64,000 nucleotides of DNA from Salipiger abyssi. GTDB taxonomy: Bacteria; Pseudomonadota; Alphaproteobacteria; Rhodobacterales; Rhodobacteraceae. A model generated the notes under the pieces. That model was not told where the DNA came from and did no database searches. It saw only the letters and a program-made list of their open reading frames with translations. The stretch spans positions 62,001 through 126,000 of the forward strand of contig NZ_JAEKIS010000009.1 of NCBI RefSeq assembly GCF_017311415.1, in the 5' to 3' direction. The position numbers and the translations under genes were made by a program. Shown here piece after piece: positions 37,466 to 52,795 of the stretch. Numbering within the stretch: position 1 is the first letter of the stretch; each line of letters opens with the position of its first letter.

Positions 37466-38452
37466 TCAGGCCGCCTCGGTCACCCGCGTCAGCGCCTTTT
37501 CGATCAGCTCGGGCCCCACACCGTCGCGCGTCGCCTCTTCCGACAGCACCCGCCGCCAGCCGCGCGCGCCGGGACGGCCCGCGAACAGCCCCAGCATGTG
37601 CCGGGTGACCTGATGCAGCCGCCCGCCCTGCGCCAGATGGCGCTCGATATAGGGCAGCATGGCGCGCGCAATGTCCTCGGGCGCGTTGGTCTCCGCCGCC
37701 GCGCCATAGATCCGCGCATCCGCCCCGGCGAGGATCTCCCAGGGCTTGTGATAGGCAGCGCGCCCGATCATCACCCCGTCGAGCCCTTCATCCAGAAACG
37801 CTTGCGCCGCGTCGAGACTGTCGATCCCGCCATTGATCGAGATCTCCAGCTCCGGGAAGGCCCGCTTCATCTCTACCACCAGCGGATAGTCGAGCGGCGG
37901 GATATCGCGGTTTTCCTTGGGGCTGAGCCCTTGCAGCCAGGCCTTGCGCGCATGGATCGTCACCTTGCGGCACCCTGCCCCGGCGACCTTTTCGACAAAG
38001 CGCGGCAGCACCTCGCGCGGCTCCTGTTCGTCGACCCCGATACGGCATTTCACGCTCACCTCGATGCCCACCGCCGCGCGCATGGCAGCGACGCAGTCGG
38101 CCACCAGCTCGGGCGTCTTCATCAGCACCGCGCCGAACGTACCCGACTGCACCCGGTCCGACGGGCAGCCGCAATTGAGGTCGATCTGATCGTATCCCGC
38201 CTGCTCGCCCAGCCGCGCCGCCTCGGCCAGTTCCTGCGGGTCGGACCCGCCAAGTTGCAGCACGACGGGATGTTCCTCAGGGCTGAAATCGAGCAGATGC
38301 AGCGCCCCGCCCCGCACCAGCGCCGGCGCGGTGACCATCTCGGTATAGAGCAGCGTCTGCCGCGACAATAGCCGGTGGAAATACCGGCAATGCCGGTCAG
38401 TCCAGTCCATCATCGGGGCAATGGCGATACTATGTGATTGATATTTATTCAT
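37466..38452 (-). CDS. dusA: tRNA-dihydrouridine(20/20a) synthase
   Basis: 328 aa FMN enzyme that reduces U20/U20a in tRNA. IAPMMDWTDRHCRYFHRLL, LQLGGSDPQELAEAA, NCGCPSDRVQSGTFGAVLM with the catalytic Cys, and INGGIDSLDAAQ are DusA hallmarks. The first ten codons (MNKYQSHSIA) are unusually A/T-rich and unlike the GC-rich body. This is expected when an integrated element has replaced the original 5' end, since dusA is a known genomic-island target. An integrase remnant starts 112 bases upstream on the other strand. Confidence 0.95.
   Translation of the reverse strand: MNKYQSHSIAIAPMMDWTDRHCRYFHRLLSRQTLLYTEMVTAPALVRGGALHLLDFSPEEHPVVLQLGGSDPQELAEAARLGEQAGYDQIDLNCGCPSDRVQSGTFGAVLMKTPELVADCVAAMRAAVGIEVSVKCRIGVDEQEPREVLPRFVEKVAGAGCRKVTIHARKAWLQGLSPKENRDIPPLDYPLVVEMKRAFPELEISINGGIDSLDAAQAFLDEGLDGVMIGRAAYHKPWEILAGADARIYGAAAETNAPEDIARAMLPYIERHLAQGGRLHQVTRHMLGLFAGRPGARGWRRVLSEEATRDGVGPELIEKALTRVTEAA
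38393..38428. other. Candidate att core in the 5' end of dusA
   Basis: The segment coding IAPMMDWTDRHC, with ATGATGGACTGGAC read on the minus strand, is the region where many islands integrate into dusA. The sequence turns from GC-rich to A/T-rich at its start-codon side. I did not find a second copy in the window. Confidence 0.45.
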
Positions 38453-38564
38453 TTCTCCAGAATCATCAACTCATTGCGCGGCGACGTGTGCACTCCAATT
38501 TACGACCCAGTACGCCCCTTTTCGCCACGTTTCGACCGCGCACTGCACACATAGAGCACATGAA

Positions 38565-39000
38565 ATGGCGACCATATCAAAGCTTCCTTCGGGCTCCTTG
38601 CGAGTCCAGGTCAGACGCAAAGGGCACGACTTCAGTGAATCCTTCCTGCGTCGCGGTGACGCGGAGCTTTGGGCGCGGACCATGGAGGGCAAGATCGATC
38701 AGGGGGAACCTATACACATTGGCGTTGCCGCGGCCAAGACATTCGGAGACCTTATCGAGCTTCACAGAGCGGATCTGGCGGAAGTCGGGAGAACGCTCGG
38801 TAGGTCGAAAGCCGCGAGCCTGGATTTTCTTGCGCTACGCCTCGGGGCTTTGAGACCCGCCGAGCCGAGCCGGGAAACGCTCGTCGAGCTCGGTCGACAG
38901 CGCGCCAAAGAAGAGGCTGGCCCGGTAAAAGTTGGCATCGACCTCGAGTATATTAAGACGATCCTTTCGCATGTTGCCGCCGTTCACGGTATCATCGCCC
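38565..39000 (+). pseudogene. Truncated tyrosine integrase (dusA-associated)
   Basis: About 145 residues remain: MATISKLPSGSLRVQVRRKG, DAELWARTMEGKIDQG and FGDLIELHRADLAEVGRTLG. This is the arm-binding and SAM-like core-binding N-terminal region of phage integrases that sit next to dusA. The catalytic domain with Arg, His and Tyr is missing. The frame runs instead into a transposase fragment at about 39001, so the protein cannot act. The direction, away from dusA, fits a dusA-integrating island. Confidence 0.75.
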
Positions 39001-39320
39001 CAACTGACCTCCAATGCCGTCCTGCGCTGGCAGGAGGGCCGCAAAGTCGAATGGCACGACATCGCTCCGGGCAACCCCATGCGGAACGGCTTGGTCGAGA
39101 GCGTCAACGGCCGCTTCCGGGACGAGTGCCTCGACCAGCACCTGTTCTCGAACCTGCGCCGTGCCCGGAACCTGGTCGCGGCGTGGCGCGACGACTATAA
39201 TCATCGCCGCCCCCCACACGAGCTTCGACGGGCTCACACCGTGGGAGTATCACCAACACTCAATAGACGACGAATCCCTGAACAGAGCGAACCAAAGAAC
39301 GCGGACTCTATGGGGGATCA
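39001..39320 (+). pseudogene. IS3-family transposase (orfB) fragment, frameshifted
   Basis: LTSNAVLRWQEGRKVEWHDI, APGNPMRNGLVESVNGRFRD, ECLDQHLFSNLRRARNLV and AAWRDDYNHRRP are the C-terminal part of an IS3-type DDE integrase core, including the catalytic Glu of VESVNGRFRDE. The N-terminal half is missing. The frame changes at a run of six C (39210-39215), after which HTSFDGLTPWEYHQ continues in another frame. The right end and any inverted repeat are not clear. From here to 39531 I see no gene. Confidence 0.75.
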
Positions 39321-39531
39321 GATCAAGATGGACACGCCGCAACTGCATCGAACCAGCATCTTGTCGGCAGCCTTCCAGGCTGACCACGGACCGAAGCACG
39401 TTCCCGAAATGCCTTGATCAGGAGTCGCGCAATGGCAATCGGAGCGACTGCGCCGAAGGAACACGCCAGCGGGATCAGGTCTGATGGTCGAAATCCCTTG
39501 ACGGACGGAGACCCGTTACCGAAGTGCTGAG

Positions 39532-41001
39532 CTAGGAGATCCCGCCCAGACAGACGTTCTTCAGCTCCAGGAAATCATCGATCCCGTACTTGGAGCCTTC
39601 GCGGCCCAAGCCGGACTGCTTGATGCCGCCAAAGGGTGCCACCTCGGTCGAGATCAGGCCGGTGTTCACGCCGACCATGCCGCTTTCGAGCGCCTCGGCC
39701 ACCCGCCAGACCCGGGACAGGTCGTTGGCGTAGAAGTAGGACGCCAAGCCGAATTCACTGTCATTGGCCATGTCGATGACCTCGGCCTCGGTTTCGAAAC
39801 GGACCAGCGCGGCAAGAGGGCCGAAGGTTTCTTCGTGACAGACCAGCATGTCGCGGGTCACGCCCGTCAGCACGGTCGGCGCAAAGAAGGTGTTGCCGGT
39901 GTTCGATCGGCTGCCGCCCGTGGTGACCTCGGCCCCCTTGCTGACCGCATCGGAGATATGCGCCTCGATCTTGGTGACGGCGGCTTTGTTGATCAATGGG
40001 CCGGTGGTCACGCCTTCGTCGAAACCATTGCCGACGTTCAGCCGCCGGACGGCGTTCTTCAGCTTTTCGGCAAAGGCATCGTAGATCCCCGACTGCACAT
40101 AGATCCGGTTGGCGCAGACACAGGTCTGACCATTGTTGCGGAACTTGGCGATCATCGCGCCCTCGACCGCCGCATCGACATCGGCGTCGTCGAAGACGAT
40201 GAATGGCGCGTTGCCGCCGAGTTCGAGCGACATCTTCTTGATGGTGCCGGCGGCCTGTTCCATCAGGATCTTTCCGACGCGGGTCGAGCCGGTGAAGGTG
40301 ATCTTGCGCACTTTGGGATTTGTGCAGAGCTCCTTGCCGACGCCCGAGGCATCGGTCGACGGGATGACATTGAACACACCCGCCGGAATGCCCGCGCGCT
40401 CCGCCAGAACCGCCAGGGCCAGCGCCGATAGCGGCGTCAGTTCCGCTGGGCGGGCGACAAAGGTACAGCCGGCGGCCAAAGCAGGGCCGACCTTGCGCGC
40501 GATCATCGCGTTGGGGAAATTCCACGGCGTGATGGAGCCGACGACACCCACGGGCTGTTTCAGCACCATGATCCGTTTGTCGCGCTGATGGCCGGGGATC
40601 ACATCGCCATAGATGCGCTTGGCCTCTTCGGCGAACCATTCGATGAAGGAGGCACCATAGAGGATCTCTCCCCGCGCCTCCGCCCAGGGCTTGCCCATCT
40701 CGGCGGTCAGGATCGTGGCCAGATCGTCCGCGTTTTCGATCATCAGATCGTTCCAGCGGCGCAGGATCGCGGCGCGCTCCTTGCCGGTCATCGCAGCCCA
40801 GCCGGGGCCGGCGGCGTGCGCCGCCTCCACCGCCCGTGCCGTTGCAGCCACATCCAGATCTGCAACCGAGGCAACAAGCTTCCCGGTGGCGGGATCAAAG
40901 ACGTCGAAGCGCGCCTCGCCCTCGATCCATGCGCCGTTCACATAGGCGCGGGTTTCCAGAAGGCTGGGGTCTTTCAGCGTCAGATTCATCAGGTCGTTCA
41001 T
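39532..41001 (-). CDS. gabD: NAD(P)-dependent succinate-semialdehyde dehydrogenase
   Basis: 489 aa aldehyde dehydrogenase. [37 protein letters not shown] (cofactor), [17 protein letters not shown] (Glu base) and [19 protein letters not shown] with the catalytic Cys are typical of GabD. It oxidises succinate semialdehyde, or a similar omega-semialdehyde, to the acid. It sits one base after gabT in the same direction and is clearly cotranscribed. The end is near the mobile-element remnant, with no terminator visible. Substrate assignment follows from its pairing with gabT. Confidence 0.88.
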
Positions 41002-41002
41002 C

Positions 41003-42280
41003 TCAGGCCCCTTTCACGGCGTCGATTGAGGCCTCCAGAATGTCGAGCGCCTCGGCAAAGACGTCCTCGGGGATGGTCAGCGGCGCTAGGAAACGGATCA
41101 CGTTGCCGTGGACCCCGCAGGTCAGCAGAACGAGCCCGCGTCTGAGCGCTTCAGCACGAATGGCGTTGGTCATTTCGGGGTTCGGCGCGCTGCCATCGGC
41201 GGTGTTGAACTCTGCCGCGACCATGAAGCCGGGGCCGCGCACATCGACAATTTCCGGCACTCGCGACCGGATTTCGTTAAGACGCTGTTTCAGACGCGAT
41301 CCAAGGATATTGGCGCGATTGCAGAGGTCTTCTTCCTCGATCACGTCCAGCACCGCATGGGCGGCGGCGATGCCCAGGGGATTGCCGCCATAGGTGCCGC
41401 CCAGCCCGCCGGGCGCCGCGGCGTCCATGATCTCGGCCCGGCCGGTGAGCGCGGCCAGCGGCAGGCCCCCGGCCAGACCTTTGGCCATGGTCGTGATGTC
41501 GGCGGCGACGTCATAGCCCTCCATCGCGAAGAGGTGACCGGTGCGTGCGAAACCCGTCTGAACCTCATCCGCGATCAACAGGATGCCATGGGTGTCACAC
41601 AGCTTGCGCAGCCCGCGCATCAATTCGGCGGGCGCGGGATAGAAGCCGCCCTCGCCCTGCACCGGCTCAAGGATGATCGCGGCCACGCGGTCGGGGTCCA
41701 GATCGGCCTTGAACAGCTTTTCGATCCCTGCCAGCGCATCGACCGTGGAGGTGCCGTGCAGCTCGACCGGGAAGGGCACATGGAAGACGTCGGGCATCAT
41801 CGCGCCGAAGCCCTTCTTGTAGGGCGCGACCTTGCCGGTGAGGCTCATCCCCATGAAGGTCCGGCCGTGGAAGCCGCCGCCAAAGGCGATGATGGCGTTG
41901 CGACCGGTGGCGGCGCGGGCGACCTTGATGGCGTTTTCTACCGCCTCGGCGCCGGTGGTGACAAAGACGGTCTTTTTCTCGAAATCGCCGGGCACCTTGT
42001 CGTTCAGCCGTTCGGCCAGCCGGATGTAATTCTCGTAAGGCAGAACCTGATGGCAGGTATGGGTGAAGGCCTCGGTCTGGCGGCGCACCGCCTCCATCAC
42101 CTTGGGGTGGCAATGGCCGGTGTTCACAACGGCGATCCCGGCGGCAAAGTCGATATAGCGTTTGCCTTCGACGTCCCAGACCTCCGACCCGGAGGCGCGT
42201 TCGACATAGACCTGCGTCTGCATGCCGACACCCCGAGAGATGGCGGCGTCGCGGCGGGCGGAGATTTCGGCATTCAGCAT
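41003..42280 (-). CDS. gabT: 4-aminobutyrate (omega-amino acid) aminotransferase
   Basis: 425 aa class III PLP enzyme. [72 protein letters not shown] and [19 protein letters not shown] (PLP-Lys) match bacterial GabT. It should move the amino group of GABA, or a close omega-amino acid, to 2-oxoglutarate. It is the first gene of the gabTD operon and diverges from an XRE-cupin regulator, the usual arrangement for PuuR-like control. A perfect 10-bp inverted repeat lies in its leader. Confidence 0.88.
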
Positions 42281-42284
42281 TGTT

Positions 42285-42344
42285 CCATATCCTGGCTGGA
42301 GCGGGGGCAGGCCCCCGTCGATTGTGGTGAGCGGCAGGATATGG
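42285..42344. promoter_or_regulatory. Perfect 10-bp inverted repeat in the gabT leader
   Basis: CCATATCCTG (42285-42294) and CAGGATATGG (42335-42344) are exact inverse complements 40 bases apart. A GC-rich 7-bp hairpin (CGGGGGC AG GCCCCCG) lies between them. It begins 5 bases upstream of the gabT start. It could be a two-site operator for the divergent regulator or an mRNA structure hiding the gabT start. Confidence 0.55.
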
Positions 42345-42427
42345 CGTTGAATTTTTGGCGAAAGTCTGTTTCTTTAATATCTTAAGTCACTGAATTATAT
42401 ATGGTGAAACAAGAACGTTGATCTATC

Positions 42428-43000
42428 ATGAACGATACTAACAGCGCGCCCGAGGAACGCGAGTTGGGTCTGCGCCTGCGGGCGGTGCGTGACCGGGCCG
42501 GACTGTCGCAGCGGGCACTTGCCAAAAAGACGGGCGTGCCCAACTCGACGATTTCGCTGATCGAGGCGGGAAAGATGAACCCGTCCGTCGGCGCGTTGCG
42601 GCGTATTCTCGATGGCGTGCCGATCAGCCTGTCGGAGTTCTTTGCCTTCGAGCCGGAGCGCGAGAAAACCAGCTTTTACGCCGCCGGGGAGCTGACCGAA
42701 ATCGGCAAGGGCAAGGTGTCGCTGAAACAGGTCGGGGCGAGCCTCTTCGGGCGTCAGCTGATGATCCTATACGAGACCTACGAGCTTGGGGCCGACACGG
42801 GCCGGGTGATGTATGGCCACGAGGGCGAGGAGGGCGGCATTGTGCTGTCCGGTCGGGTCGAGATCACCGTCGGCGAAGACCGCAAGATCCTCGGGCCGGG
42901 TGATGCCTATTACTTCGACAGCCGCGCGCCGCATCGCTTTCGCCAGGTGGGGCCCGAGAAATGCGTGCTGGTCAGCGCCTGCACCCCGCCGACCTTCTGA
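42428..43000 (+). CDS. XRE-family regulator with cupin domain (PuuR-like)
   Basis: 190 aa. Residues 12-67 form an XRE helix-turn-helix (LRLRAVRDRAGLSQRALAKK, then TISLIEAGKMNPSVGALRRI). Residues 110-185 form a cupin (RVMYGHEGEEGGIVLSGRVE, then GPGDAYYFDSRAPHRFRQVG). PuuR-type regulators repress putrescine and GABA genes and sense the substrate through the cupin. The gene diverges from gabT, so it most likely controls gabTD. There is no strong ribosome-binding site. It converges on the LuxR-type regulator gene, 21 bases apart. Confidence 0.88.
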   Translation: MNDTNSAPEERELGLRLRAVRDRAGLSQRALAKKTGVPNSTISLIEAGKMNPSVGALRRILDGVPISLSEFFAFEPEREKTSFYAAGELTEIGKGKVSLKQVGASLFGRQLMILYETYELGADTGRVMYGHEGEEGGIVLSGRVEITVGEDRKILGPGDAYYFDSRAPHRFRQVGPEKCVLVSACTPPTF

Positions 43001-43021
43001 ACACGGGCGCATGCCGGCCGG

Positions 43022-44062
43022 TCAGGTCTGGGCAAGCTCCAGAAGCAGGATGAAGAGCTCGCGCTCTGTGGTGATATCGAGCTTGTAATACAGGCGATGC
43101 TTGTGATTCCGCACGGTCCCGGCACTGATCGCCAGCGCGTCGGCGATGCGTGAATTCGGCTCTCCCTGAACCATCATCGAGACGATCTGCCGCTCTCGCG
43201 AGGTGAGCTGATATTTCACCTGAAGCTGGTCCACCAGATCGGCGGCTTCGAGCGCGGTATAGCCCGGCGATTTCTGCTCGACCGTCAGAACCTTTCCTTC
43301 CGGCGCGACCGGGTTGGTCTCTGAAAGTTCCGACCATTTCAGGATGAATTCCGTGCCGATCCCGGCTTCGCCGGATTTGCCCGTGGCCAGAAGGGCGTCG
43401 ATCTCGTGCCGGATGTCCGGAGAGATCGCGCTGTTCCAGGAATCGTTCCTGAAGATCTCCCGGCCCCTGCGGTCCTGCACCAGCATGGAGATCTCGGAAT
43501 TCTTCAGATCCGTTGCGCCATAATTGACGAAGCTGAGACGGACATGTTGCTGATGCACCATGTTGATCGTGTCGAAGATGAGCTTGGCGCGGAAGATGTC
43601 CTGTTCGGAAAAGGTGCGCGAGGACAGATCAATGCAGATCGCGACAAAGACTCCGTTGACGATCGGCAGCATGAAAATCAGCTCGTCGCGTATGTTCGCG
43701 GTGCGGAACATGGCGTCGTAAAAGAACGTATCAGCGCTGCCCCGGCGCAGCTCATCGAAGGTTAGAACGGGATTCACGCGGCCTTCCCGCACCCGCCGGA
43801 GCAGCGGATCGATCCGGTAATACTGGTCCAGATATTGCGAGACGGCAGCCTCTTCCATGGCATGGTTGGACAGGAATTCCGGCTTTGCGTGCATCGCGTA
43901 GCGAATGACCAGGTATCTGTCTGTATTGAAGAAACTGGCCAGTTCCCGGGCCAGGGAGGGGTAGAACATATCCTGGCCGCTGCGCGCGATCACCGTGCCG
44001 AGCGACACGAGAAAGTCGATCGCCAGTTTGTCTTTCATGCCGGTGTCATCATCCTCTTGCAT
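43022..44062 (-). CDS. LuxR-type transcriptional regulator
   Basis: About 346 aa. The C-terminal 65 residues are a LuxR/FixJ helix-turn-helix (YQLTSRERQIVSMMVQGEPN, then ALAISAGTVRNHKHRLYYKL). The N-terminal 200 residues look like a GAF/PAS-like sensor (FFNTDRYLVIRYAMHAKPEF) with no receiver Asp and no clear autoinducer motif. Several ATGs are possible; 44062 is chosen for its AGGG upstream. It diverges from the amidase gene, with an 18-bp palindrome between, and probably controls the amidase-M24-transporter operon. Confidence 0.82.
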   Translation of the reverse strand: MQEDDDTGMKDKLAIDFLVSLGTVIARSGQDMFYPSLARELASFFNTDRYLVIRYAMHAKPEFLSNHAMEEAAVSQYLDQYYRIDPLLRRVREGRVNPVLTFDELRRGSADTFFYDAMFRTANIRDELIFMLPIVNGVFVAICIDLSSRTFSEQDIFRAKLIFDTINMVHQQHVRLSFVNYGATDLKNSEISMLVQDRRGREIFRNDSWNSAISPDIRHEIDALLATGKSGEAGIGTEFILKWSELSETNPVAPEGKVLTVEQKSPGYTALEAADLVDQLQVKYQLTSRERQIVSMMVQGEPNSRIADALAISAGTVRNHKHRLYYKLDITTERELFILLLELAQT

Positions 44063-44114
44063 GCTTGCCCTGTTCTCTCCCTCCGGCATATGCCCGATCA
44101 TCCGTCCGCGGCGA

Positions 44115-44132
44115 TGGTGACGGTTGTCACCA
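44115..44132. promoter_or_regulatory. 18-bp perfect palindrome between the LuxR regulator and amidase genes
   Basis: TGGTGAC and GTCACCA flank GGTT. The spacing and perfect symmetry fit a dimeric operator. It is 53 bases from the putative regulator start and 64 bases from the amidase start. Confidence 0.55.
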
Positions 44133-44196
44133 TACACATGTGAGCCGTCCTGGGGTTTGCTTGATTGCGTCACAGCGCATCGCAACCGGGGACCGA

Positions 44197-45582
44197 ATGC
44201 ACCGTCAGACCGTTCACACGATTCAGCAAACCCTCCTGAAACGGGAGCGCTCTGCTGCGGAGATTGTAGCGGATGCGCTGGCGCGGGCTGAAGAGGTCCA
44301 AAAGCACTGCAATGCCTTCACGCGCATCTTTGCGGAGGAGGCGCTGCAAAGCGCGCGGCGGGCGGATGAGGCTTTGGCCGGCGGAAAGCCCATGCGCGCG
44401 CTGGAGGGCGTCCCGGTCTGCATCAAGGATATGACGCCCATAGCCGGGCATCCGCCGACATACGGAACATGGGCGCGGGCGCGAAACGGTGCGCCGGGCG
44501 AGGCGGTGATCGTGTCCCGCCTGAAGCGGGCCGGCGCCATCGTTCTGGCCCGGACCACCACCGCCGAGCTGGCGTTTTCCAGCTTCACCGCGACAGAGCG
44601 TTACGGCGTCACGCGAAACCCCTGGGACGGTCGGCGGACCTCCGGCGGCTCGTCCGGCGGCAGCGCAGTCGCGGTGGCCGCGGGTGTTGTGCCACTGGCC
44701 GAAGGCTCCGACATGGGCGGCTCCGTGCGCATTCCCGCCGCCGCCTGTGGCGTGGTTGGCTTCAAGCCGAGCCTCGGGCGGATCCCGATGGATATTCTGC
44801 CCACGCCTTGCGATACGATCTCGCATTTCGGTCCGCTCGCGGGCTCCGTGCAGGATGCCGTCACGTTCCTGTCGGTGACCGCCGGGCATTCCCCGGCGGA
44901 TCTTCTGAGCCAGAAGCGACCGTTTCGCGCCACCGAGGCCGCGCCGGGATCTGTGCCCGGGCTGCGGATCGCCGCTTCGGTCGATCTTGGCTATTGCGGT
45001 GTCTCTCCGGAGGTCGCGGAGACGTTTCACACCGTTCTGGACCGCCTGCGCGCGCATGGCGCCGATATCCGCGAAGTGCGCCTGCCCTGGACGCGGGCGG
45101 TCTTTGACCTCTGGGCCACACATTGGAACGCGCTGCTCTGCGCGATGGCCGAAGAGTTCGAAGACACCTCCCGGATGGGCGTACCACTTCGGCGCTGTCT
45201 CGCGCAGGGGCAGGCGGTCAGGGCGCGGGATCTGATGCAGGCGGACCGTCTGCGGAAGGCCATGGCTGCGGACATGGCCGGTATCTTCGAACACTGCGAT
45301 GCCTTCCTCTGCCCGACGCTGGCGCGCCTCGCGCCCGCCGTCGACAAGACCGATGCTGATTTCGAAGACGATCTGCCAGACGGTCGCTTTCATGCCTTCG
45401 ACATGACGCACCCCTTCAACATGCTGTCCGCTTATCCCGCCATATCCATGCCCGTAAGCCTATCCGGGGATCTTCCGGTCGGCATCCAGATCGTCGGCCC
45501 GGCCTATGAGGACGAGCGCACGCTGGCCGTGGCGGGTGCATTCGAGAAGCTTTTTCCTCCGCTCCCTCTGCCCAAATTCTGA
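44197..45582 (+). CDS. Amidase signature-family hydrolase
   Basis: 461 aa. The Ser-cisSer-Lys triad is complete: Lys in VPVCIKDMTPIAG, and two Ser in RTSGGSSGGSAVAVAAGVVP and SDMGGSVRIPAAACG. It hydrolyses amide bonds in the cytoplasm; the substrate of this clade is unknown. The ATG at 44197 has GGGGA nearby. It is the first gene of a tight seven-gene operon with an M24 hydrolase and an ABC importer, so it probably acts on what the importer brings in, releasing ammonia or an acyl group. Confidence 0.88.
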   Translation: MHRQTVHTIQQTLLKRERSAAEIVADALARAEEVQKHCNAFTRIFAEEALQSARRADEALAGGKPMRALEGVPVCIKDMTPIAGHPPTYGTWARARNGAPGEAVIVSRLKRAGAIVLARTTTAELAFSSFTATERYGVTRNPWDGRRTSGGSSGGSAVAVAAGVVPLAEGSDMGGSVRIPAAACGVVGFKPSLGRIPMDILPTPCDTISHFGPLAGSVQDAVTFLSVTAGHSPADLLSQKRPFRATEAAPGSVPGLRIAASVDLGYCGVSPEVAETFHTVLDRLRAHGADIREVRLPWTRAVFDLWATHWNALLCAMAEEFEDTSRMGVPLRRCLAQGQAVRARDLMQADRLRKAMAADMAGIFEHCDAFLCPTLARLAPAVDKTDADFEDDLPDGRFHAFDMTHPFNMLSAYPAISMPVSLSGDLPVGIQIVGPAYEDERTLAVAGAFEKLFPPLPLPKF

Positions 45583-45594
45583 AAGGAGACAGAT

Positions 45595-46815
45595 GTGACA
45601 CTCCCCGCAATACCAGATGCCGAGTTCGAAGCCCGGCGTGACCGTGCCCGAAAGATGGCGAAAGACGCGGGCCTTGATGCGCTGGTGATCTGGTCGCGCA
45701 GCGGCAATTCGGTCGAGGCCTATGGCGATCTTTTCTACCTGACGAATTTCGTGTCGCTGTTCCCCTGCGTGCCCGACCGGAAGACCTGGAGCAGCCGTGG
45801 CCATGCCGCCCTGATCCTGCCGGTGGACGGCGCGCCGGTGCTTCTGACCGATTATCTCGACGATCCGGAAGACCGCATCAAGGTGACCGATGTCCGCTTT
45901 GCTCTCGATCTGGCAGCGGGCACCGGCAAGGCTCTGGCCGATATGGGGCTGCTGGATCGCCGGATCGGGATGGTGGGCATGATGTCCTATCTGGTCAGCG
46001 CGCATCAGCGCCTGGAGGCCGCCGCCGGACGCCCCGTTACGTTCGAAAGCGCCGATCATATTCTCGAACGTCTGCGGCTGATCAAGAGCCCGTCCGAGAT
46101 CGCCATGCTGCGGCACTCCGCCAGCGTTGGGAAAAAATGGATGGATGCCACCATGGCGGCGCTGGTCGAGGGCAATACCGAAGGCGACGCGGTGGGCGCG
46201 GGGCTTGCGGTGCTGGCGGCCAATGGCGGTACGCAACAGGACATCGCCATTGCCAGCGGGCCGAACGCGATCCACTACATGGGCAGCTCCGGCGTGCCGC
46301 ACTGGAACGTGCAGCGGGCGCTGGAACCCGGTGACCTCGTCCATGTCGACCTCTGGGGGCCGGTCTTCGGCTATTATACCGATTTCGCCCGCTCCACCGT
46401 TGTCGGTGGCAAGCCCGATGGCGGGCAGAAAGAGCTGCTCGAAGGCAGCCGGGCGCTGATCCATCACATCATCGCCGGGATCGAACCGGGCAAAACCCGG
46501 TTCCGCGATCTCTACACGCGCGGCACCGCGTGGCTCGATGCCAACGGCTTTGCCAATCACAAGAGCACGGCGGACGAGACCAACAATTTCAGCCAGCAAT
46601 TCCCGTGTTTCGGCCATGCCATCGGCCTCGGGATCGACGGGCCGTGGATCGTCGAGGACGAGCAGACCGTGATTCAGCCGAACATGACGATCGCGGTCGA
46701 GGCGCTGGTGTCGAAGCTCGGGGTTGGCGCTGCCAACTATGAAGAAGACGTGCTGGTGACCGATAAGGGCGCGGAAATCCTGACCTCGGCCTGCGACGGC
46801 GTGCGCTGGGGCTGA
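45595..46815 (+). CDS. M24-family metallohydrolase (pita-bread fold)
   Basis: 406 aa. A creatinase-like N-terminal domain (about 1-160) precedes the catalytic domain. All five dinuclear metal ligands appear present: Asp in LVHVDLWGP, Asp in YYTDFARSTV, His in FGHAIGLGIDGPW, Glu in IAVEALVS and Glu in NYEEDVLVT. The family includes Xaa-Pro peptidases, creatinase and ectoine hydrolase, so this could open a C-N bond of a small imported amide. The GTG start has AAAGGAG seven bases upstream and lies 12 bases after the amidase stop. Confidence 0.85.
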   Translation: MTLPAIPDAEFEARRDRARKMAKDAGLDALVIWSRSGNSVEAYGDLFYLTNFVSLFPCVPDRKTWSSRGHAALILPVDGAPVLLTDYLDDPEDRIKVTDVRFALDLAAGTGKALADMGLLDRRIGMVGMMSYLVSAHQRLEAAAGRPVTFESADHILERLRLIKSPSEIAMLRHSASVGKKWMDATMAALVEGNTEGDAVGAGLAVLAANGGTQQDIAIASGPNAIHYMGSSGVPHWNVQRALEPGDLVHVDLWGPVFGYYTDFARSTVVGGKPDGGQKELLEGSRALIHHIIAGIEPGKTRFRDLYTRGTAWLDANGFANHKSTADETNNFSQQFPCFGHAIGLGIDGPWIVEDEQTVIQPNMTIAVEALVSKLGVGAANYEEDVLVTDKGAEILTSACDGVRWG

Positions 46816-46883
46816 GGCCCGGACTGGCGGACCGGACAGGCTCCGGTCCGCCTTACAGAAACACAAACGACAGGGAAAACGAC

Positions 46884-48074
46884 ATGAAACTCACTTATTT
46901 TGCAGGCGCGATGCTCGCCGCCGGTGCGATGTCTCAGATGGCCGCCGCGCAGGAGACGATCAAGATCGGCGCCCCCATTCCCTTGACGGGGTATTTCGCC
47001 GCCGATGGTCAGACCATGCAGGAGGCGGTCGATCTGGCCGCCGCTGATCTGAATGCCGAGGGCGGTGTGCTGGGCAGGCAGGTCGAGGTCGTCACCTTCG
47101 ATATCGGCGACCTGACGCCCGACAAGCTCACCGCCGCTGCCGCCAATCTGATCGAACGCGACGAGGTGAGCGTGCTCATCAACGGCTATGGCGGCATGGG
47201 GCCGGATATCCCGGCATTCTGCCCCTATGGCATCCCCTACATCCACAACGATGCCGTCAGCAGCGTGGTCGATCTCGCCGAGCGGATGAATTGCGGCGCC
47301 ATTTTCAACGCCTCGGATATCGACGTGAATTACGGTCGCATCGTCTTCGAGCAGATGCTTGCAAGCGGCTACGACTTCCCCTCCGAAACCCTCGCGCTCG
47401 TGCATGGCGATTACGAATGGGACATCAATGTCGCCAAGGGCATGGCGGAGGCGGCGGAAGCGGCCGGATGGACCGTCGTTTATGAACAGGAAGTGCCCTA
47501 CGATACGGTCGAGTGGACCAACGTCATCGGCAAGCTGAACGACGCCAAGCCCGGCCTGATCCATTTCGAGGCGCTTGATCCGTCGGTCGCCACGACCTTC
47601 ATGTCGCAGCTCGCCCTCGACCCGGTTCCGGGCGCGGCGCTCAATATCGGCTATATCGGCGCGACCCCGGGTGTCGACGACGCGATTGCCCAGGGACAGG
47701 CTGAGGGGGTCTTTACCTTCACCCTGAACGCACACGGCACCGACGAGGCGGGCGTGGCTTTCGAGCAGGAGTGGATGGCGGCCTATGATGCGGAACCTCC
47801 GGTCAGCCTCGCCGCTGCGGTTTATGATATGGTCCACCTTTGGGCGGGCGCTGTCGAAGCCGTTGGCGACGACCGCGATTTCGCGGCTGTTGCGGAGCAG
47901 ATCGGGGCGCTCGATTTCGACGGGATCGCCGGCACCTATGCCTTCAACGACCGCAACTTCATCGACTCCAGTGCCGAGACCCAGCCGGCCCAGCTGTTCC
48001 AGATCCAGGATGGCAAACGCGTACCGGTTGTCATCGGCGACGAGGTCGTTGCGCCGGTAACCGCCGCGGAGTGA
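46884..48074 (+). CDS. ABC transporter substrate-binding protein, Liv/amide type
   Basis: 396 aa with a signal peptide (MKLTYFAGAMLAAGAMSQMAAA). The mature start ETIKIGAPIPLTGYFAADGQ is typical of type I periplasmic binding proteins of the branched-chain amino acid and amide class. It binds the ligand in the periplasm and hands it to the permeases below. The sequence has one close Cys pair region but no known ligand signature. It follows the M24 gene by 68 bases and leads the transporter part of the operon. Confidence 0.88.
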   Translation: MKLTYFAGAMLAAGAMSQMAAAQETIKIGAPIPLTGYFAADGQTMQEAVDLAAADLNAEGGVLGRQVEVVTFDIGDLTPDKLTAAAANLIERDEVSVLINGYGGMGPDIPAFCPYGIPYIHNDAVSSVVDLAERMNCGAIFNASDIDVNYGRIVFEQMLASGYDFPSETLALVHGDYEWDINVAKGMAEAAEAAGWTVVYEQEVPYDTVEWTNVIGKLNDAKPGLIHFEALDPSVATTFMSQLALDPVPGAALNIGYIGATPGVDDAIAQGQAEGVFTFTLNAHGTDEAGVAFEQEWMAAYDAEPPVSLAAAVYDMVHLWAGAVEAVGDDRDFAAVAEQIGALDFDGIAGTYAFNDRNFIDSSAETQPAQLFQIQDGKRVPVVIGDEVVAPVTAAE

Positions 48075-48145
48075 CGTGTCTCGTGGCGCCGGCCCGCATC
48101 TGACGGGCCGGCGCCCGCGCGTCGATGTCTGCCGGAGGGGATCAA

Positions 48146-48868
48146 ATGACGTCAAATCATATCATGTCGCTGAACAAGGTCGGAATGCGGTTCGGGTCCT
48201 TCCAGGCCCTGTCCGATCTGTCTTTCGATATCGACGCGGGCGAAGTGCTCGGCGTCGCGGGGCCGAACGGCGCGGGCAAGAGCACGCTGCTCAATGTCTG
48301 TACCGGCGGGCTCTGCCCGACATCCGGGAGCGTGCTGCTCGACGGGCAGGACATCACCGCCCTGCCGCGCCATTCGAGATGCTCCAAGGGCATCGCGATG
48401 ACCTTTCAGATTCCAACGGTCATTTCGTCGCTGACCGTGGCCGAAAACCTGCTGGTGGGCCGGAGTTTTGGCGGCAGCCACAGGCATGATTTCGACGCCA
48501 TTGTCGAGATCGCCGGGCTGGGCGATGTGCTCGGCGCCGATGCCGGGACGGTGGATCTGCTGACGCGCAAGGCGATCATGCTCGGCGCCGCCCTCGCGAC
48601 GGGCCCGCGGATCGTTTTCATGGACGAGCCGCTTGGCGGTCTGAACGCGGACGAGATCAAGCGCTTCGTGCAGATGATCGACCGCTGCCGGCAGGCATTC
48701 GGTGTCACCGTCGTCATGGTCGAGCACAAGACCCGCGCGCTTGCCGAGATCGCCGACCGTATTCTGATCATCAATTTCGGCAAGTTCGTCTGCCTCGACC
48801 GCCCCTCCGTCGTACTCAACGACGACCACGTTGTCGAAATCTACCTCGGGAAGAAACACGATGCTTGA
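48146..48868 (+). CDS. ABC transporter ATP-binding protein, LivG type
   Basis: 240 aa. GVAGPNGAGKSTLLNVCTGG is Walker A, VIFMDEPLGGLN-like RIVFMDEPLGGLNADEIK is Walker B. The usual signature LSGG is replaced by VDLLTRKAIMLGAALATGP, so the canonical C-motif is degenerate in this subunit. FQIPTVISSLTVAENLLVG is the Q-loop region. The start at 48146 has GGAGGGG six bases upstream. The stop overlaps the LivF-type gene by eight bases. Confidence 0.88.
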   Translation: MTSNHIMSLNKVGMRFGSFQALSDLSFDIDAGEVLGVAGPNGAGKSTLLNVCTGGLCPTSGSVLLDGQDITALPRHSRCSKGIAMTFQIPTVISSLTVAENLLVGRSFGGSHRHDFDAIVEIAGLGDVLGADAGTVDLLTRKAIMLGAALATGPRIVFMDEPLGGLNADEIKRFVQMIDRCRQAFGVTVVMVEHKTRALAEIADRILIINFGKFVCLDRPSVVLNDDHVVEIYLGKKHDA

Positions 48869-49535
48869 AGTTGACAGGATCAATGTCAGCTATGGCGACT
48901 TTCATGTGCTGCACGACGTTTCGCTGAAGGTTGAAAAGGGCGAAATGGTCGCCGTCCTCGGCGCCAATGGCCATGGCAAGAGCACCCTGCTGAAAGCCCT
49001 GTGCGGTCTGCTGCCAATCCAGAACGGGACTGTCCGCTATGAGGGGTCCGACATCACCCGGCTTGCATCGACGGAGCTGGTGCAGCGCGGTCTCGTCTAC
49101 GTCGCCGAAGACCGGCGGCTGTTCCGCGACATGACGGTGCTCGACAACCTCATGCTCGGCGCGTTCAACACACGCGCCTGGAAATGCCGCGAAAAGACGC
49201 TCGATCAGGTCTTTGCGCTCTATCCGCGTCTGGAGGAGCGCCGGCATCAGCTTTGCCGCCATCTCAGCGGGGGTGAGGCGCAGATGGTTGCGCTGGGGCG
49301 CGGGCTCATGTCGAAGCCGCATCTTCTGGTCATCGACGAGCCGTCTCTCGGGCTCGCGCCGAACCTGACGGCGCAGATGATGGAAACGATCCACGACCTG
49401 AACAGGGCCGGGATGACCATCCTGTTGGTCGAGCAGAACGCGGCGCTGCTGACCGGACACATAAGCCGGAGCTACGTGATCGAAGAGGGTGTGATTGCCG
49501 AGGGCGATCTTTCGGCATTCGGGGAGTTGCAGTGA
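48861..49535 (+). CDS. ABC transporter ATP-binding protein, LivF type
   Basis: 224 aa. VLGANGHGKSTLLKALCGLL is Walker A (with His in place of Ala), LSGGEAQMVALGRGLMSKPH contains the intact LSGGE signature, and LLVIDEPSLGLAPN is Walker B. LVEQNAALLTGHISRSYVIE is the family H-loop replacement. It pairs with the LivG-type subunit to power import. Its ATG lies inside the end of the preceding gene and its stop overlaps the permease start (TGATG), so translation is coupled. Confidence 0.92.
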   Translation: MLEVDRINVSYGDFHVLHDVSLKVEKGEMVAVLGANGHGKSTLLKALCGLLPIQNGTVRYEGSDITRLASTELVQRGLVYVAEDRRLFRDMTVLDNLMLGAFNTRAWKCREKTLDQVFALYPRLEERRHQLCRHLSGGEAQMVALGRGLMSKPHLLVIDEPSLGLAPNLTAQMMETIHDLNRAGMTILLVEQNAALLTGHISRSYVIEEGVIAEGDLSAFGELQ

Positions 49536-50404
49536 TGAACATCGTCGAAATCCTGATCAGCGGCACGACACAGGGTGCTGTCTACTGCGTGATCGCGATG
49601 GGACTGTCGCTCGTCTATGGCACGTCCCGCATTCTCAATTTCGCCCATGGCGCGCTCTACACCCTTGGCGGCTATATCGCGTGGTTTCTGATGTATGGCG
49701 GCCCGGGCCTGTCCTTTGGCCTCGCATTCGTCGTGTCGCTGCCGCTGCTCTTCTGTATCGGCGTGGCACTTGAGGCGGGCATCATCCGCCCGCTCCGGCG
49801 CCACGCGAACTGGCAGATCAACGCAATCATGGTCACCCTCGGACTGGCCTTCGTGATCGAGAACGGGTTGCAGCTCCTCTTCGGGCCGAAAACCAAGACC
49901 ATTCCCGCCTTTATCGAGGGCGGTGTCTCCATCGGCGGGACGACGGTCTCGCTCTACAAGATTGCGCTTGTCGGCATTTCGGTCCTGCTCGTGGTGCTGC
50001 TGGAGCTGTTCCTGGCGCGCACGCGGGCGGGAAAATCCGTTCAGGCGGTGTCGCAGGATCTTCAGGCGGCGGCGCAGGTCGGGATCAATGTGAACCGTGT
50101 CTTCGGTCTGGCCCTCGGCCTGTCGGTCGTGCTGACCGGGGCGGCGGGCATTCTGCTCGCACCGGTCTTTCAGATTTCGCCCACCGGCGGCTGGTCGCCT
50201 TTTCTGAAAGCCTTCGTGATCGTCGTCTTCGGCGGGCTGGGAAGCACGCGGGGCGCCATGCTCGCGGCGTTCATCCTGGCGTTTCTGGAGGCCATCGTCG
50301 TTGCCTCCGTGGGGCCGGGCTGGGCGATGCCGGCCTGGCTCATCGTGCTGATGATCGTCCTGATGACACGGCCGAAGGGCCTCTTGGGGGTATGGGAGAA
50401 CTGA
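49535..50404 (+). CDS. ABC transporter permease, LivH type
   Basis: 289 aa with about eight membrane helices. GTTQGAVYCVIAMGLSLVYG, RILNFAHGALYTLGGYIAW and the late GKSVQAVSQDLQAAAQVGIN (the cytoplasmic EAA-like coupling loop) are hallmarks of LivH. A GTG three bases upstream is an alternative start. It forms the transmembrane channel together with the LivM-type subunit. Confidence 0.92.
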   Translation: MNIVEILISGTTQGAVYCVIAMGLSLVYGTSRILNFAHGALYTLGGYIAWFLMYGGPGLSFGLAFVVSLPLLFCIGVALEAGIIRPLRRHANWQINAIMVTLGLAFVIENGLQLLFGPKTKTIPAFIEGGVSIGGTTVSLYKIALVGISVLLVVLLELFLARTRAGKSVQAVSQDLQAAAQVGINVNRVFGLALGLSVVLTGAAGILLAPVFQISPTGGWSPFLKAFVIVVFGGLGSTRGAMLAAFILAFLEAIVVASVGPGWAMPAWLIVLMIVLMTRPKGLLGVWEN

Positions 50405-50405
50405 G

Positions 50406-51428
50406 ATGACAAAACCGATACAAGACAGCCGGTCCAGACCCGCCGGCCTGAGCTCGCGGTTCACGGGCGCCCACTATCTCCGCGACAGCCTGGCGTTTCT
50501 CGGCTGCGCGATGGCGTTTCTCGCCGCAGGGCTCGTGATCGGCGAAAACTACGTGTTCCACATCCTGATCCTGATCTGCATCTGGAGCGCGGTCATCGCG
50601 GGGTGGGATCTTCTGATCGGCTATGCCGGTGTCTTCAACTACGCTCAACTCGTGTTTTTCGCCGTCGGCGCCTATGGCAGCGCGATGCTGTCGGTGTCGG
50701 GCGGCCTGCCCGCGCTCGCCGCAATCCCGCTCGCCGCCGGGATCGGCGGGCTTTTCGGCGCGCTGATCGCCATTCCAAGCGCCCGCCTCAAGGGGGAATA
50801 CGTCGCCCTCTTCACCTTTGCGGTGCATCTCGCGCTGCCGTCGATCCTGCAACAGACACGGGGTCTCGGGACAGGGGGCAGTACGGGTATTCTGGGCCTG
50901 CCGCCGATCTCGCTGTTCAGCCAAACGTTCTATGCGATCGACAAACAGGCCTGGTTCCTCATGGCCCTGATCGTCGCCGTGATCTGCATCTACCTGATCT
51001 ATTTCGTCGTGCTGCGCAGCAGGTTCGGCCTGGCGCTTCTGGCGATGCGCGACGCGCCGGCCTTTTCCGAGGCGCTCGGCGTGAACGGGCGCCGGTATCA
51101 GATCGCCGCCTTTGCAATCTCGGCTGCCATCACCGCCTTTGCCGGCGCGTTCTATGCACATTACACCGCCGTGGTGACGCCGCGCATTCTCGGGACGGAG
51201 TTCTTCCTGATGGCGATGGTGATGCTCGCCATCGGGGGCATGGGCCGGTTTCCCGGGGCGCTGCTCGGTGTCTGTGTCGTCGTTATCGGCAACGAAGTGC
51301 TTCGCAGTTTCGACAGTTATCGGCTGTTCGCGCTGGGGCTGATCGTCATCGGTTCGGTGATATTCCTGCCGCACGGGCTGGGTGGTGTCCTAAGACGTTT
51401 TGGTAAAAAGGATTCTCCTCGGGCTTAG
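50406..51428 (+). CDS. ABC transporter permease, LivM type
   Basis: 340 aa with about nine membrane helices. WDLLIGYAGVFNYAQLVFFA, GEYVALFTFAVHLALPSIL and LALLAMRDAPAFSEALGVNG (coupling loop) match LivM. It starts one base after the LivH stop. The last residues (GKKDSPRA) and the TAG stop abut an IS5-type fragment, so the extreme C-terminus may have been rewritten by the insertion. It is the last gene of the island operon. Confidence 0.92.
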   Translation: MTKPIQDSRSRPAGLSSRFTGAHYLRDSLAFLGCAMAFLAAGLVIGENYVFHILILICIWSAVIAGWDLLIGYAGVFNYAQLVFFAVGAYGSAMLSVSGGLPALAAIPLAAGIGGLFGALIAIPSARLKGEYVALFTFAVHLALPSILQQTRGLGTGGSTGILGLPPISLFSQTFYAIDKQAWFLMALIVAVICIYLIYFVVLRSRFGLALLAMRDAPAFSEALGVNGRRYQIAAFAISAAITAFAGAFYAHYTAVVTPRILGTEFFLMAMVMLAIGGMGRFPGALLGVCVVVIGNEVLRSFDSYRLFALGLIVIGSVIFLPHGLGGVLRRFGKKDSPRA

Positions 51429-51556
51429 GCTCAGGACCCATTGATTGTGGCGGAGAGGCGTGATTCACCGTCCGGCAACAAAGCGGTGATCTGTCTGATC
51501 TCTTCTGGCTGAGCGATGCGCAGATGGCGCGTCTGGAGCCTTACTGCCCCAAGCCG
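51429..51556 (+). mobile_element. IS5-family insertion sequence, 5' fragment
   Basis: The frame reading DLSDLFWLSDAQMARLEPYC then PKP (from about 51490) matches the start of IS5-type transposases (xSDLFWLSDxQMARLEPF). It is cut after about 23 residues and the normal ATG is lost. A left terminal repeat may lie near 51421-51440 (GGCTTAGGCTCAGGACCC), but the partner end is absent. Confidence 0.7.
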
Positions 51557-52711
51557 CCCAGAAAATGAAGGCGCGCATGCAGGCCGGCTATTGGGTGCAC
51601 AGGGCTGCCTATCGCACCCAGAAGGGCCACGGCAAGATCCTGGTCCGCGACGAACCGCTTGCCTCGATTGTCCAGGAAGCCTTCGAAGGCTATGCATCTG
51701 GCCGCTTCCAGACCCAGGCCGAAATCAAACGCTTCTTCGAGGGGTTTCCCGCGTTTCCGCGCGACCAGAAAGGTACGGTCACGCAACAACGCGTCACCGA
51801 CATCCTGACCCACCCCATCTATACCGGCCATATCCCCAGCGCGCATTCCGGCCTCAGCTGGTTCAAGGGGCATCATGAGGCGCTGATCACGCTGGAGCTC
51901 TTCGACAGGGTCCAGACCCTTCGCCAAGGCACCCAAGCGCAAGAATATCGGCGATGCCTTCGCCCTGCGCGGCACGATCGTCTGTGCCGAGTGCGAAGTG
52001 CCGCTGCGCCCCTCCCTCACCCGCGGCCATTACCCATACGACCTCTGCCAGACCAAAACCTGCTCGAGCTATGGCAAATCCATTCCCCGCGACCGGCTGG
52101 AGGAGGAAGTCGGAACGATCATCAAAACCCTGCAACCCTCTCGCGACCTGATCGCCCTGGCCACGGCCATGTTCCGCCACGCGTGGGACCAGCGCCGCGC
52201 CCAGGCCGAAGACATCCGCGGCGCCGCCCTCCGCCAGATCGCGGATTGCGACAAACAAATCGCCAAGCCCCTCGACCGCGTCGTCGAAACGACAAATGCC
52301 AGAGTCGTCACGGCCTATGAAACCAAGATTGCCAGCCTCGAACATGACAAGGCGCGTGTCGCCGAGAATCTGGTGCTTCGAACAGAACCGGTGGGACCGT
52401 TCGAGGAAAAACGAGAACCTCTCCTGACATTCCTCGCAGGCCCCTGGAAACTCTGGGCATCCGAGCAAATCACCCTACGCAGGACGGTGCTCAAACTGGC
52501 CTTCGCAGGGCGGCTCAAATATGACGGGAAAACAGGGCCTAAAAGCCCGGAAATCTCCTTCACATTCAAGGCATTACAGCGCCTTCAGGAAGGGGAAGTC
52601 TGTTTTGGTGCGGTCGAGAAGACTCGAACTTCCACGGGAGTTACCCCACAGCGACCTCAACGCTGCGCGTCTACCAATTCCGCCACGACCGCACTGCCAT
52701 TGGCTTGGTGA
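51557..52711 (+). pseudogene. Large serine recombinase, N-truncated and frameshifted
   Basis: QKMKARMQAGYWVHRAAYRT, GKILVRDEPLASIVQEAFEG and YASGRFQTQAEIKRFFEG are the recombinase domain of large serine recombinases. A frameshift near 51920-51930 moves the remainder into another frame. There RGTIVCAECEVPLRPSLTRG then YDLCQTKTC is the zinc ribbon, followed by a coiled coil to about 52600. The N-terminal resolvase domain with the catalytic Ser is gone, replaced by the IS5 fragment. The open frame runs antisense into tRNA-Leu before stopping at 52711. Confidence 0.82.
52606..52692 (-). tRNA. tRNA-Leu (anticodon GAG)
   Basis: On the minus strand GCGGTCG pairs with CGACCGC as acceptor stem. The anticodon stem CAGCG/CGCTG encloses TTGAGGT, giving GAG. 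There is a long variable arm (class II tRNA) and a T-arm with GTTCGAGTC. CCA is encoded. Length 87 nt. Its 3' end faces the island, the usual orientation for a tRNA used as an integration site. Confidence 0.95.
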
Positions 52712-52795
52712 CGCGCTCTCTACAAAAGCTGCGCGGAGAAGGGAAGAGGGAAATCGCATTCCGATCAGATTTTCGCGCACCGCGTGCATCGACGC

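What the first reader, a model, noticed from the sequence alone, without database searches (positions are those of the whole stretch)
39532..51428. Self-contained catabolic island for an unknown GABA-type amide
gabT-gabD, two regulators of different families, an amidase, a full-metal-site M24 hydrolase and a complete Liv-type importer lie together, tightly spaced, and are bounded on both sides by dead mobile elements. The logic is import, hydrolysis by two different C-N hydrolases, transamination and oxidation to succinate. No combination of known pathways (putrescine, ectoine, creatine, urea) fits all parts, so a new compound such as a lactam, N-acyl GABA or GABA amide may be degraded.
Basis: partly seen in the sequence, partly recalled or inferred. 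Interest (0 to 1): 0.7.

Follow-up and report, generated by a model that had tools for sequence, protein, structure and literature searches.

The report
Mobile GABA-feeding amide-degradation gene cassette
A marine Salipiger bacterium carries a transferable block of eleven genes that probably imports and breaks down an unidentified nitrogen-rich compound into GABA and then succinate; relatives of the block in other marine bacteria carry a guanidine-cutting enzyme, which points to a guanidino compound as the food.

Summary
39532-51428 encodes gabD, gabT, a PuuR-like cupin regulator, a LuxR-type regulator, an amidase, an M24 hydrolase with five metal ligands and a five-gene Liv/Urt-type importer, between mobile-element remnants. 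It is a transferable cassette: Salipiger abyssi plasmid pPABY1 carries the same eleven genes (95.8% DNA identity over 39538-51391) without flanking homology in the 41 kb read. It joins two units. gabDT-cupin is an ordinary GABA unit, found alone in Ruegeria and other Salipiger. LuxR-amidase-M24-importer is a rare core; all four M24 copies found at 70% identity or more lie in it. Related loci sharpen the substrate. Celeribacter neptunius has the core beside a non-orthologous transaminase and aldehyde dehydrogenase. Paracoccus seriniphilus adds an arginase-family ureohydrolase with the conserved palindrome upstream. In Sulfitobacter dubius the importer sits with that ureohydrolase and a nitrilase-fold hydrolase. 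Best reading: uptake and amide cleavage of a C4 amino or guanidino compound, ending at GABA and succinate. The guanidino part is inferred; the window's own island has no ureohydrolase. The binding protein reaches neither the Liv nor the UrtA cut-off. Substrate unproven; the kind of system is known, and my paper searches found no description of this combination.

The parts
39532..41001 (-). gabD, succinate-semialdehyde dehydrogenase
   Evidence: TIGR01780 731.8 bits, cut-off 646.35
41003..42280 (-). gabT, 4-aminobutyrate:2-oxoglutarate transaminase
   Evidence: NF005692 828.4 bits, cut-off 724; TIGR00700 575.1, cut-off 506.65
42428..43000 (+). HTH-cupin regulator, PuuR-like; part of the gabDT-cupin triad also found without the core
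   Evidence: (PuuR 126.2 bits, cut-off 211: not a PuuR equivalog)
43022..44038 (-). LuxR-type regulator (C-terminal GerE domain, N-terminal part unassigned); start by the S. abyssi annotation, open frame runs on to 44185
44114..44133 (.). 20-bp perfect palindrome ATGGTGAC-GGTT-GTCACCAT, probable operator of the LuxR-type regulator
44197..45582 (+). amidase-signature hydrolase; K77, S152, S176 conserved (triad assignment recalled); start by the S. abyssi annotation
45595..46815 (+). M24 (prolidase/creatinase fold) hydrolase with five metal ligands D252 D263 H341 E369 E383
46884..48074 (+). periplasmic binding protein of the Liv/Urt type
48146..48868 (+). ABC ATPase 1 (open frame from 48125)
48861..49535 (+). 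ABC ATPase 2 (open frame from 48831)
49532..50404 (+). permease 1, UrtB/LivH type
   Evidence: UrtB 147.1 bits against LivH 101.5, both below cut-off
50406..51428 (+). permease 2 (PF02653)
38565..39200 (+). open frame just upstream of dusA, broken off in the window; looks like the start of a tyrosine integrase (by eye; no Pfam match)
38932..39417 (+). transposase remnant (integrase core, rve_3)
51430..51553 (+). end of a dispersed repeat, probably an insertion sequence; found in 18 of 19 other Salipiger genomes
51565..52320 (+). broken serine-recombinase gene (PF07508)
52606..52692 (-). tRNA-Leu(gag), start of the right chromosomal flank

Best explanation
A mobile catabolic cassette made of two joined units. 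Unit 1 (LuxR-type regulator, amidase, M24 hydrolase, five-gene importer) takes up and cleaves a small C4 compound that carries an amide, most likely an omega-guanidino or omega-amino acyl amide. Unit 2 (gabT-gabD with its own cupin regulator) turns the resulting GABA through succinic semialdehyde into succinate. Shown here: gene content, family assignments, conserved catalytic and metal residues, recurrence of the core, occurrence as a block in a second species, and the shared palindrome. Inferred: order of reactions, control of the core by the LuxR-type protein through the palindrome, and substrate class. In this window any guanidino group would have to be removed by the M24 enzyme or by a ureohydrolase encoded elsewhere in the genome. 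My estimates: catabolic cassette ending at GABA 0.65; guanidino-type substrate 0.35.
For: Same eleven genes in S. abyssi pPABY1, DNA match starting inside gabD and stopping inside the last permease. All 4 loci found with an M24 at 70% identity or more (window, L010, L011, L012) have luxR, amidase, M24 and the five importer genes in the same order. Celeribacter has a class-III transaminase of another branch (29% to gabT; 669 bits to 5kr6, named 4-aminobutyrate transaminase; its two best solved matches are named only putative aminotransferase) and an SSADH-like dehydrogenase (49% to gabD, below the SSADH cut-off) beside the core: a separate pairing with omega-amine oxidation. The Paracoccus ureohydrolase, searched in 72,556 plasmid records at E<=1e-70, found itself and Sulfitobacter only, both beside this importer; a third copy lies beside the importer in G541. 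Its metal and substrate-site residues are conserved. All 9 distinct loci found with the binding protein at 50% identity or more have an amide hydrolase nearby, of amidase or nitrilase type. The palindrome RTGAC-N4-GTCAY occurs 8 times in 734,304 bases of the window plus 33 loci of 10 kb or more; 6 of the 8 lie at system genes, one of them upstream of the Paracoccus ureohydrolase.
Against: No ureohydrolase in the window's island, and Paracoccus has both M24 and ureohydrolase, so M24 is not simply its substitute. The palindrome is absent from the gabDT promoter (1 match in the window at up to 3 mismatches; 11 of 100 shuffles also had one), so the two units do not share that operator. Paracoccus and Celeribacter lack gabDT beside the core; gabDT-cupin exists alone in other genomes. 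The Paracoccus and Sulfitobacter ureohydrolases pass the TIGR01230 agmatinase cut-off (184.8 and 196.1 against 174.3), though not PRK02190 (190.5 and 202.9 against 302); TIGR01230 is also passed by this genome's guanidinopropionase-like protein. Agmatine or an acyl-agmatine is therefore as possible as a guanidino acid. Three of the 9 importer loci (M382, Alisedimentitalea, G356) show neither ureohydrolase nor gabTD in the stretches read, and their amidase is only 29-31% identical. The order search with the Paracoccus ureohydrolase found 0 of 390 genomes and has no positive control. Structure matches do not single out a ligand or substrate.
Confidence: 0.5

Rival explanations
1. The substrate has no guanidino group: a GABA amide, N-acyl GABA or GABA-containing dipeptide is imported, the M24 enzyme acts as a prolidase-like dipeptidase and the amidase removes the second amide.
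For: M24 has the full metal site of peptide-cleaving family members; no ureohydrolase in the window's island; gabTD close by.
Against: A ureohydrolase accompanies the same importer in Paracoccus, Sulfitobacter and G541, with a copy of the palindrome upstream of it in Paracoccus.
Confidence: 0.25
2. Chance joining: gabDT-cupin is an unrelated GABA unit that landed next to the core; the core degrades something that never becomes GABA.
For: gabDT-cupin is autonomous elsewhere; no shared palindrome; Paracoccus and Celeribacter cores lack it; one evolutionary event could explain both Salipiger copies.
Against: The two units occur as one block in two species and two genomic settings; Celeribacter pairs the core with another transaminase plus SSADH-like dehydrogenase.
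Confidence: 0.2
3. An ordinary branched-chain amino acid or peptide importer with unrelated hydrolases beside it.
For: The importer has the Liv gene set; the predicted binding-protein fold matches LivJ-type proteins among others.
Against: Binding protein far below the Liv cut-off (44.2 against 477 bits); first permease closer to UrtB than LivH; an amide hydrolase near each of the 9 importer loci.
Confidence: 0.05

Closest known systems
gabDT with PuuR-type regulator (GABA shunt and end of the putrescine Puu pathway)
   Same: gabT and gabD by curated cut-offs, with an HTH-cupin regulator; same end reactions
   Different: Regulator below the PuuR cut-off; no puuA-D genes seen in the island; joined to an importer and two hydrolases
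Arginine oxygenase / guanidinobutyrate route (arginine to 4-guanidinobutyramide to 4-guanidinobutyrate to GABA plus urea; recalled)
   Same: Amidase, transaminase and SSADH present in the window; ureohydrolase in related loci
   Different: Ureohydrolase missing from this island; M24 enzyme and dedicated importer are extra; an arginine monooxygenase was not searched for
Ectoine hydrolase DoeA/EutD and creatinase (M24 fold)
   Same: Fold and Creatinase_N + M24 domains
   Different: Below DoeA cut-offs (45.3 against 575; 24.2 against 613); five metal ligands present, unlike metal-free creatinase (recalled)
Urea (Urt) and branched-chain (Liv) ABC importers
   Same: Five-gene architecture; best named match of permease 1 is UrtB
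   Different: Named matches of binding protein and permease 1 far below curated cut-offs
Guanidine hydrolase (PDB label 'agmatinase 2'; function recalled) and metformin hydrolase subunit A
   Same: Best solved relatives of the Paracoccus and Sulfitobacter ureohydrolases
   Different: Those ureohydrolases are not in the window's island; their substrate is unknown

Membership tests
4-aminobutyrate transaminase (gabT) | NCBIfam equivalog cut-off | tested here: met
   NF005692 828.4 against 724; TIGR00700 575.1 against 506.65
Succinate-semialdehyde dehydrogenase (gabD) | NCBIfam TIGR01780 (subfamily) cut-off | tested here: met
   731.8 against 646.35; the NADP-dependent equivalog NF008415 is missed (751.2 against 828)
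PuuR regulator | NCBIfam equivalog cut-off | tested here: not met
   126.2 against 211
M24 metal-dependent peptidase (prolidase type) | M24 domain and five metal ligands (D, D, H, E, E) | tested here: met
M24 metal-dependent peptidase (prolidase type) | cleavage of Xaa-Pro | not testable with these tools
   archaeal PepQ model 55.9 against 630 bits
Ectoine hydrolase DoeA/EutD | NCBIfam cut-off | tested here: not met
   45.3 against 575 and 24.2 against 613
DMSP lyase DddP | NCBIfam cut-off | tested here: not met
   27.6 against 600
Creatinase | loss of the metal site | tested here: not met
   (five ligands present); that creatinase lacks the metal is recalled
Amidase-signature hydrolase | PF01425 and Lys/cis-Ser/Ser triad | tested here: met
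   (K77, S152, S176 invariant in 7 of 7 sequences; triad roles recalled)
AtzE (1-carboxybiuret) or allophanate hydrolase | NCBIfam cut-off | tested here: not met
   260.2 against 461; 188.4 against 487
Urea importer Urt | UrtA cut-off | tested here: not met
   60.7 against 492.75
Branched-chain importer Liv | binding-protein cut-off | tested here: not met
   44.2 against 477
Guanidinobutyrate route | ureohydrolase with intact active site in the island | tested here: not met
   none in the window's island; present in L012, L037, L052; four arginase-family genes elsewhere in this genome, one closest to guanidinopropionase and guanidinobutyrase
Agmatinase (the Paracoccus and Sulfitobacter ureohydrolases) | NCBIfam cut-offs | tested here: inconclusive
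   TIGR01230 met (184.8, 196.1 against 174.3), PRK02190 not met (190.5, 202.9 against 302)

The most novel reading that the evidence does not exclude
The core and its relatives degrade a guanylureido or guanidino butyric acid derivative of red algae, such as gongrine (gamma-(guanylureido)butyric acid) or 4-guanidinobutyrate relatives. These are abundant nitrogen compounds of some algae, and the papers I searched show no bacterial degradation pathway for them. Importer, amide hydrolase and ureohydrolase would strip the carbamoyl and amidino groups and leave GABA for gabTD.
Probability: 0.08. Interest if true: 0.75.

Novelty: new variant of a known kind. Interest (0 to 1): 0.45.

Why it matters
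Marine bacteria exchange many transport-and-hydrolysis blocks whose substrates are unknown. Here comparison of related loci narrows the chemistry to amide plus probably guanidino plus C4 omega-amino, and names cultured strains in which it can be tested. A confirmed substrate would give a dissolved organic nitrogen pathway, a binding protein and a set of uncharacterised amidase, M24 and ureohydrolase enzymes at once.

Tried and rejected
G832 (L026) has a 35% amidase about 5 kb from its M24, but with molybdopterin-dehydrogenase and dipeptide-importer genes around, so I did not count it. Predicted structures of the binding protein (mean pLDDT 72.8) and M24 (79.6) matched many ligand classes and did not discriminate: urea, amide, aromatic acid and leucine binders for the first; prolidase, creatinase, EutD and DddP for the second. 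I looked for an empty site: the dusA and tRNA-Leu flanks are not neighbours in S. abyssi or in other Salipiger with both on one contig, so no simple empty site was found. Repeats shared by the two flanks: none of 12 bases or more between 38400-39600 and 51350-52900; the earlier repeat search treated each flank alone. ARAGORN's tRNA-??? at 46467-46557 lies inside the M24 gene and is taken as spurious. Paper searches on guanidinobutyramide, guanidinobutyrate with Roseobacter or marine bacteria, guanidinobutyrase (25 of 34 listed) and mixed gene-set terms listed nothing on such a cluster by title or abstract start. Amidase relatives in Shinella and Sagittula (L040, L041) lack the importer in the stretches read. 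Sagittula has an arginase-family gene about 6 kb away, and Shinella has a LuxR-type gene next to the amidase and an SSADH gene about 7 kb away; I left both out as weak. Three other own-genome arginase-family proteins: one passes both agmatinase models (L053), one is close to the 'agmatinase 2' guanidine hydrolases (L055, 537 bits), one closest to agmatinase 1wog (L056).


Full report
Check of the observation. gabT and gabD pass curated cut-offs. The cupin regulator is PuuR-like but below the PuuR cut-off. The amidase, M24, binding protein and first permease pass no curated NCBIfam cut-off, so their substrates are open. The M24 enzyme has five metal ligands, in line with its alignment to Pyrococcus prolidase (ligand roles recalled). 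Both flanks hold mobile-element remnants. G+C is 63% in the cassette against 66-67% in the flanks.

Distribution of the core. The M24 protein (E<=1e-60) matched in 1 of 292 order genomes, the window's own, and in 2 of 20 genomes of the genus, the window's and S. abyssi. Looser samples (E<=1e-40) gave 3 of 394 family genomes and 9 of 385 class genomes, the window's own included; the others were at 39% identity or less. A protein search of 72,556 plasmid records gave 4: S. abyssi 97%, P. seriniphilus 75%, and two at 34%. The genome-contig scan, which reaches close relatives only, gave 1, Celeribacter neptunius, 94%. All 4 loci found with an M24 at 70% identity or more share the order luxR (divergent), amidase, M24, binding protein, two ATPases, two permeases.

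A transferable block. Between the window and pPABY1 the DNA match runs 39538-51391 at 95.8% and stops at both ends of the gene set; no other match was found in the 41 kb read. The window copy sits among chromosomal-type genes (tRNAs, RuvX, DusA); the other is on a plasmid. The left flank (dusA) and the right flank (tRNA-Leu onward) are close here. In S. abyssi they lie at 4.22 Mb and 0.60 Mb of one 4.25-Mb contig, about 0.6 Mb apart if that contig is circular and 3.6 Mb if not. In G963, G966 and G969 they lie 0.17-0.73 Mb apart on one contig; in G957 1.9 Mb apart and in G159 24 kb apart, both in another arrangement. So a rearrangement, or an assembly join, also lies at this place. Another Salipiger (G965, L077) shares the sequence next to dusA up to window position 39007. 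The two flanks share no repeat of 12 bases or more.

Two units. gabD-gabT-cupin occurs without the core in Ruegeria pomeroyi and Ruegeria sp. TM1040 and in 5 further Salipiger genomes at 71-78% protein identity; those 5 have no M24 match at E<=1e-60. In this genome and S. abyssi the cassette copy is the only gabT at E<=1e-150.

What sits beside the core or importer elsewhere. Celeribacter: an SSADH-like dehydrogenase (49% to gabD, 578 bits against the TIGR01780 cut-off of 646) and a class-III transaminase from another branch (29% to gabT; passes the unnamed subfamily NF005684), whose solved relatives include chains named 4-aminobutyrate transaminase. Paracoccus: an arginase-family gene annotated speB just after the last permease. 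Rhodobacteraceae M382, Alisedimentitalea and G356 have the importer with an amidase 29-31% identical to the window's. The importer loci came from 5 of 72,556 plasmid records (E<=1e-30), 4 of 394 family genomes (E<=1e-80) and Celeribacter. So 9 of 9 distinct loci with this binding protein have an amide hydrolase nearby, of two unrelated families. Amidases are common in such genomes, so for the three most distant loci this is weak.

The ureohydrolase. The Paracoccus and Sulfitobacter proteins are 49% identical; the search with the former in 72,556 plasmid records at E<=1e-70 returned only these two. A sample of 390 order genomes gave none at E<=1e-80, without a positive control. Arginase-family metal ligands and the substrate-site His and Glu are invariant in the 7 aligned sequences (roles recalled). 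Their best solved relatives are two chains labelled agmatinase 2 (guanidine hydrolases, recalled) and metformin hydrolase subunit A. Guanidinobutyrase scores above the agmatinase chain 7lol for Sulfitobacter (164.5 against 137.9) but not for Paracoccus (139.0 against 139.7). Both pass the TIGR01230 agmatinase cut-off and miss PRK02190. TIGR01230 is lax: this genome's guanidinopropionase-like protein passes it too. The agmatinase label is unsafe in this family: the human enzyme so annotated hydrolyses guanidino acids, and agmatine hydrolysis was not detected (PMC9772407, passages). So a guanidino substrate is likely for this enzyme, but guanidino acid and agmatine cannot be told apart here. The window's genome has four arginase-family genes elsewhere: an agmatinase by both models, a guanidinopropionase/guanidinobutyrase-like one, one close to the agmatinase 2 chains, one closest to agmatinase 1wog. 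The genome could supply the activity, but nothing ties those genes to the cassette.

A shared palindrome. The gap between luxR and amidase holds ATGGTGACGGTTGTCACCAT in the window, S. abyssi and Celeribacter, and a related palindrome in Paracoccus. RTGAC-N4-GTCAY occurs 8 times in 734,304 bases, the window plus 33 loci of 10 kb or more, some overlapping: 4 in luxR-amidase gaps, 1 about 100 bp upstream of the Paracoccus ureohydrolase, 1 at the luxR start of S. dubius, and 2 elsewhere (L037 6001, L040 13800). G541 does not match the full pattern. Under equal base use about 3 would be expected in that much DNA (my estimate). Three of the luxR-amidase copies are closely related and not independent. 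The palindrome is absent before gabT, which has its own regulator.

How it most likely works. The LuxR-type protein senses the compound and switches on uptake and hydrolysis. The importer brings it in. Amidase and M24 each break a C-N bond. Where a guanidino group is present a ureohydrolase releases urea. The C4 omega-amino product is transaminated and oxidised to succinate by gabTD here, or by the other pair in Celeribacter. Only the gene content, residues, recurrence and palindrome are shown; reaction order, ligand and regulation are inferred. The guanidino step is the weakest for this window, since its island has no ureohydrolase.

Candidate compounds. 4-guanidinobutyramide or an acyl-agmatine fits amide hydrolase plus ureohydrolase plus gabTD (routes recalled). 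A bolder candidate is gongrine, gamma-(guanylureido)butyric acid of red algae, reported at about 30% of total nitrogen in one alga in January (PMC13208526, abstract and passages). Metformin hydrolase, a ureohydrolase, splits metformin into guanylurea and dimethylamine (PMC11271267, abstract and passages). Searches for gongrine and gigartinine listed 1 and 4 papers, none on bacterial degradation by title or abstract start (listings only, apart from PMC13208526). No direct evidence links gongrine to these genes.

Verdict. A real, mobile and rare catabolic cassette of a familiar kind, with an unassigned substrate.

Noticed in passing
window 38453 and 52605: The chromosomal flanks left (dusA) and right (tRNA-Leu) of the cassette lie hundreds of kilobases apart in most Salipiger that have both on one contig, so a rearrangement or assembly join lies here.
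   Followed up: partly
window 38420-39007: A frame starting next to dusA and broken off in the window, shared with another Salipiger (L077); dusA 5' ends are known sites for integrases (recalled).
   Followed up: partly
window 51430-51553: A dispersed repeat found in 18 of 19 other Salipiger genomes searched, several copies in some, probably the end of an insertion sequence; no second copy of it was listed in this genome.
   Followed up: partly
G000 C1:577087, C2:8630, C2:264422, C11:73737: Four arginase-family genes in the same genome: agmatinase, guanidinopropionase/guanidinobutyrase-like, 'agmatinase 2' (guanidine hydrolase, recalled) and a fourth closest to agmatinase 1wog.
   Followed up: partly
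L035/L036 3037-11592: The related importer in M382 and Alisedimentitalea sits beside genes annotated ADP-ribosylglycohydrolase family, urea carboxylase-associated, amidohydrolase and polysaccharide deacetylase: perhaps another ureide or guanidino pathway.
   Followed up: no
window 46467-46557: ARAGORN calls a tRNA with unclear anticodon inside the M24 gene, probably spurious.
   Followed up: no
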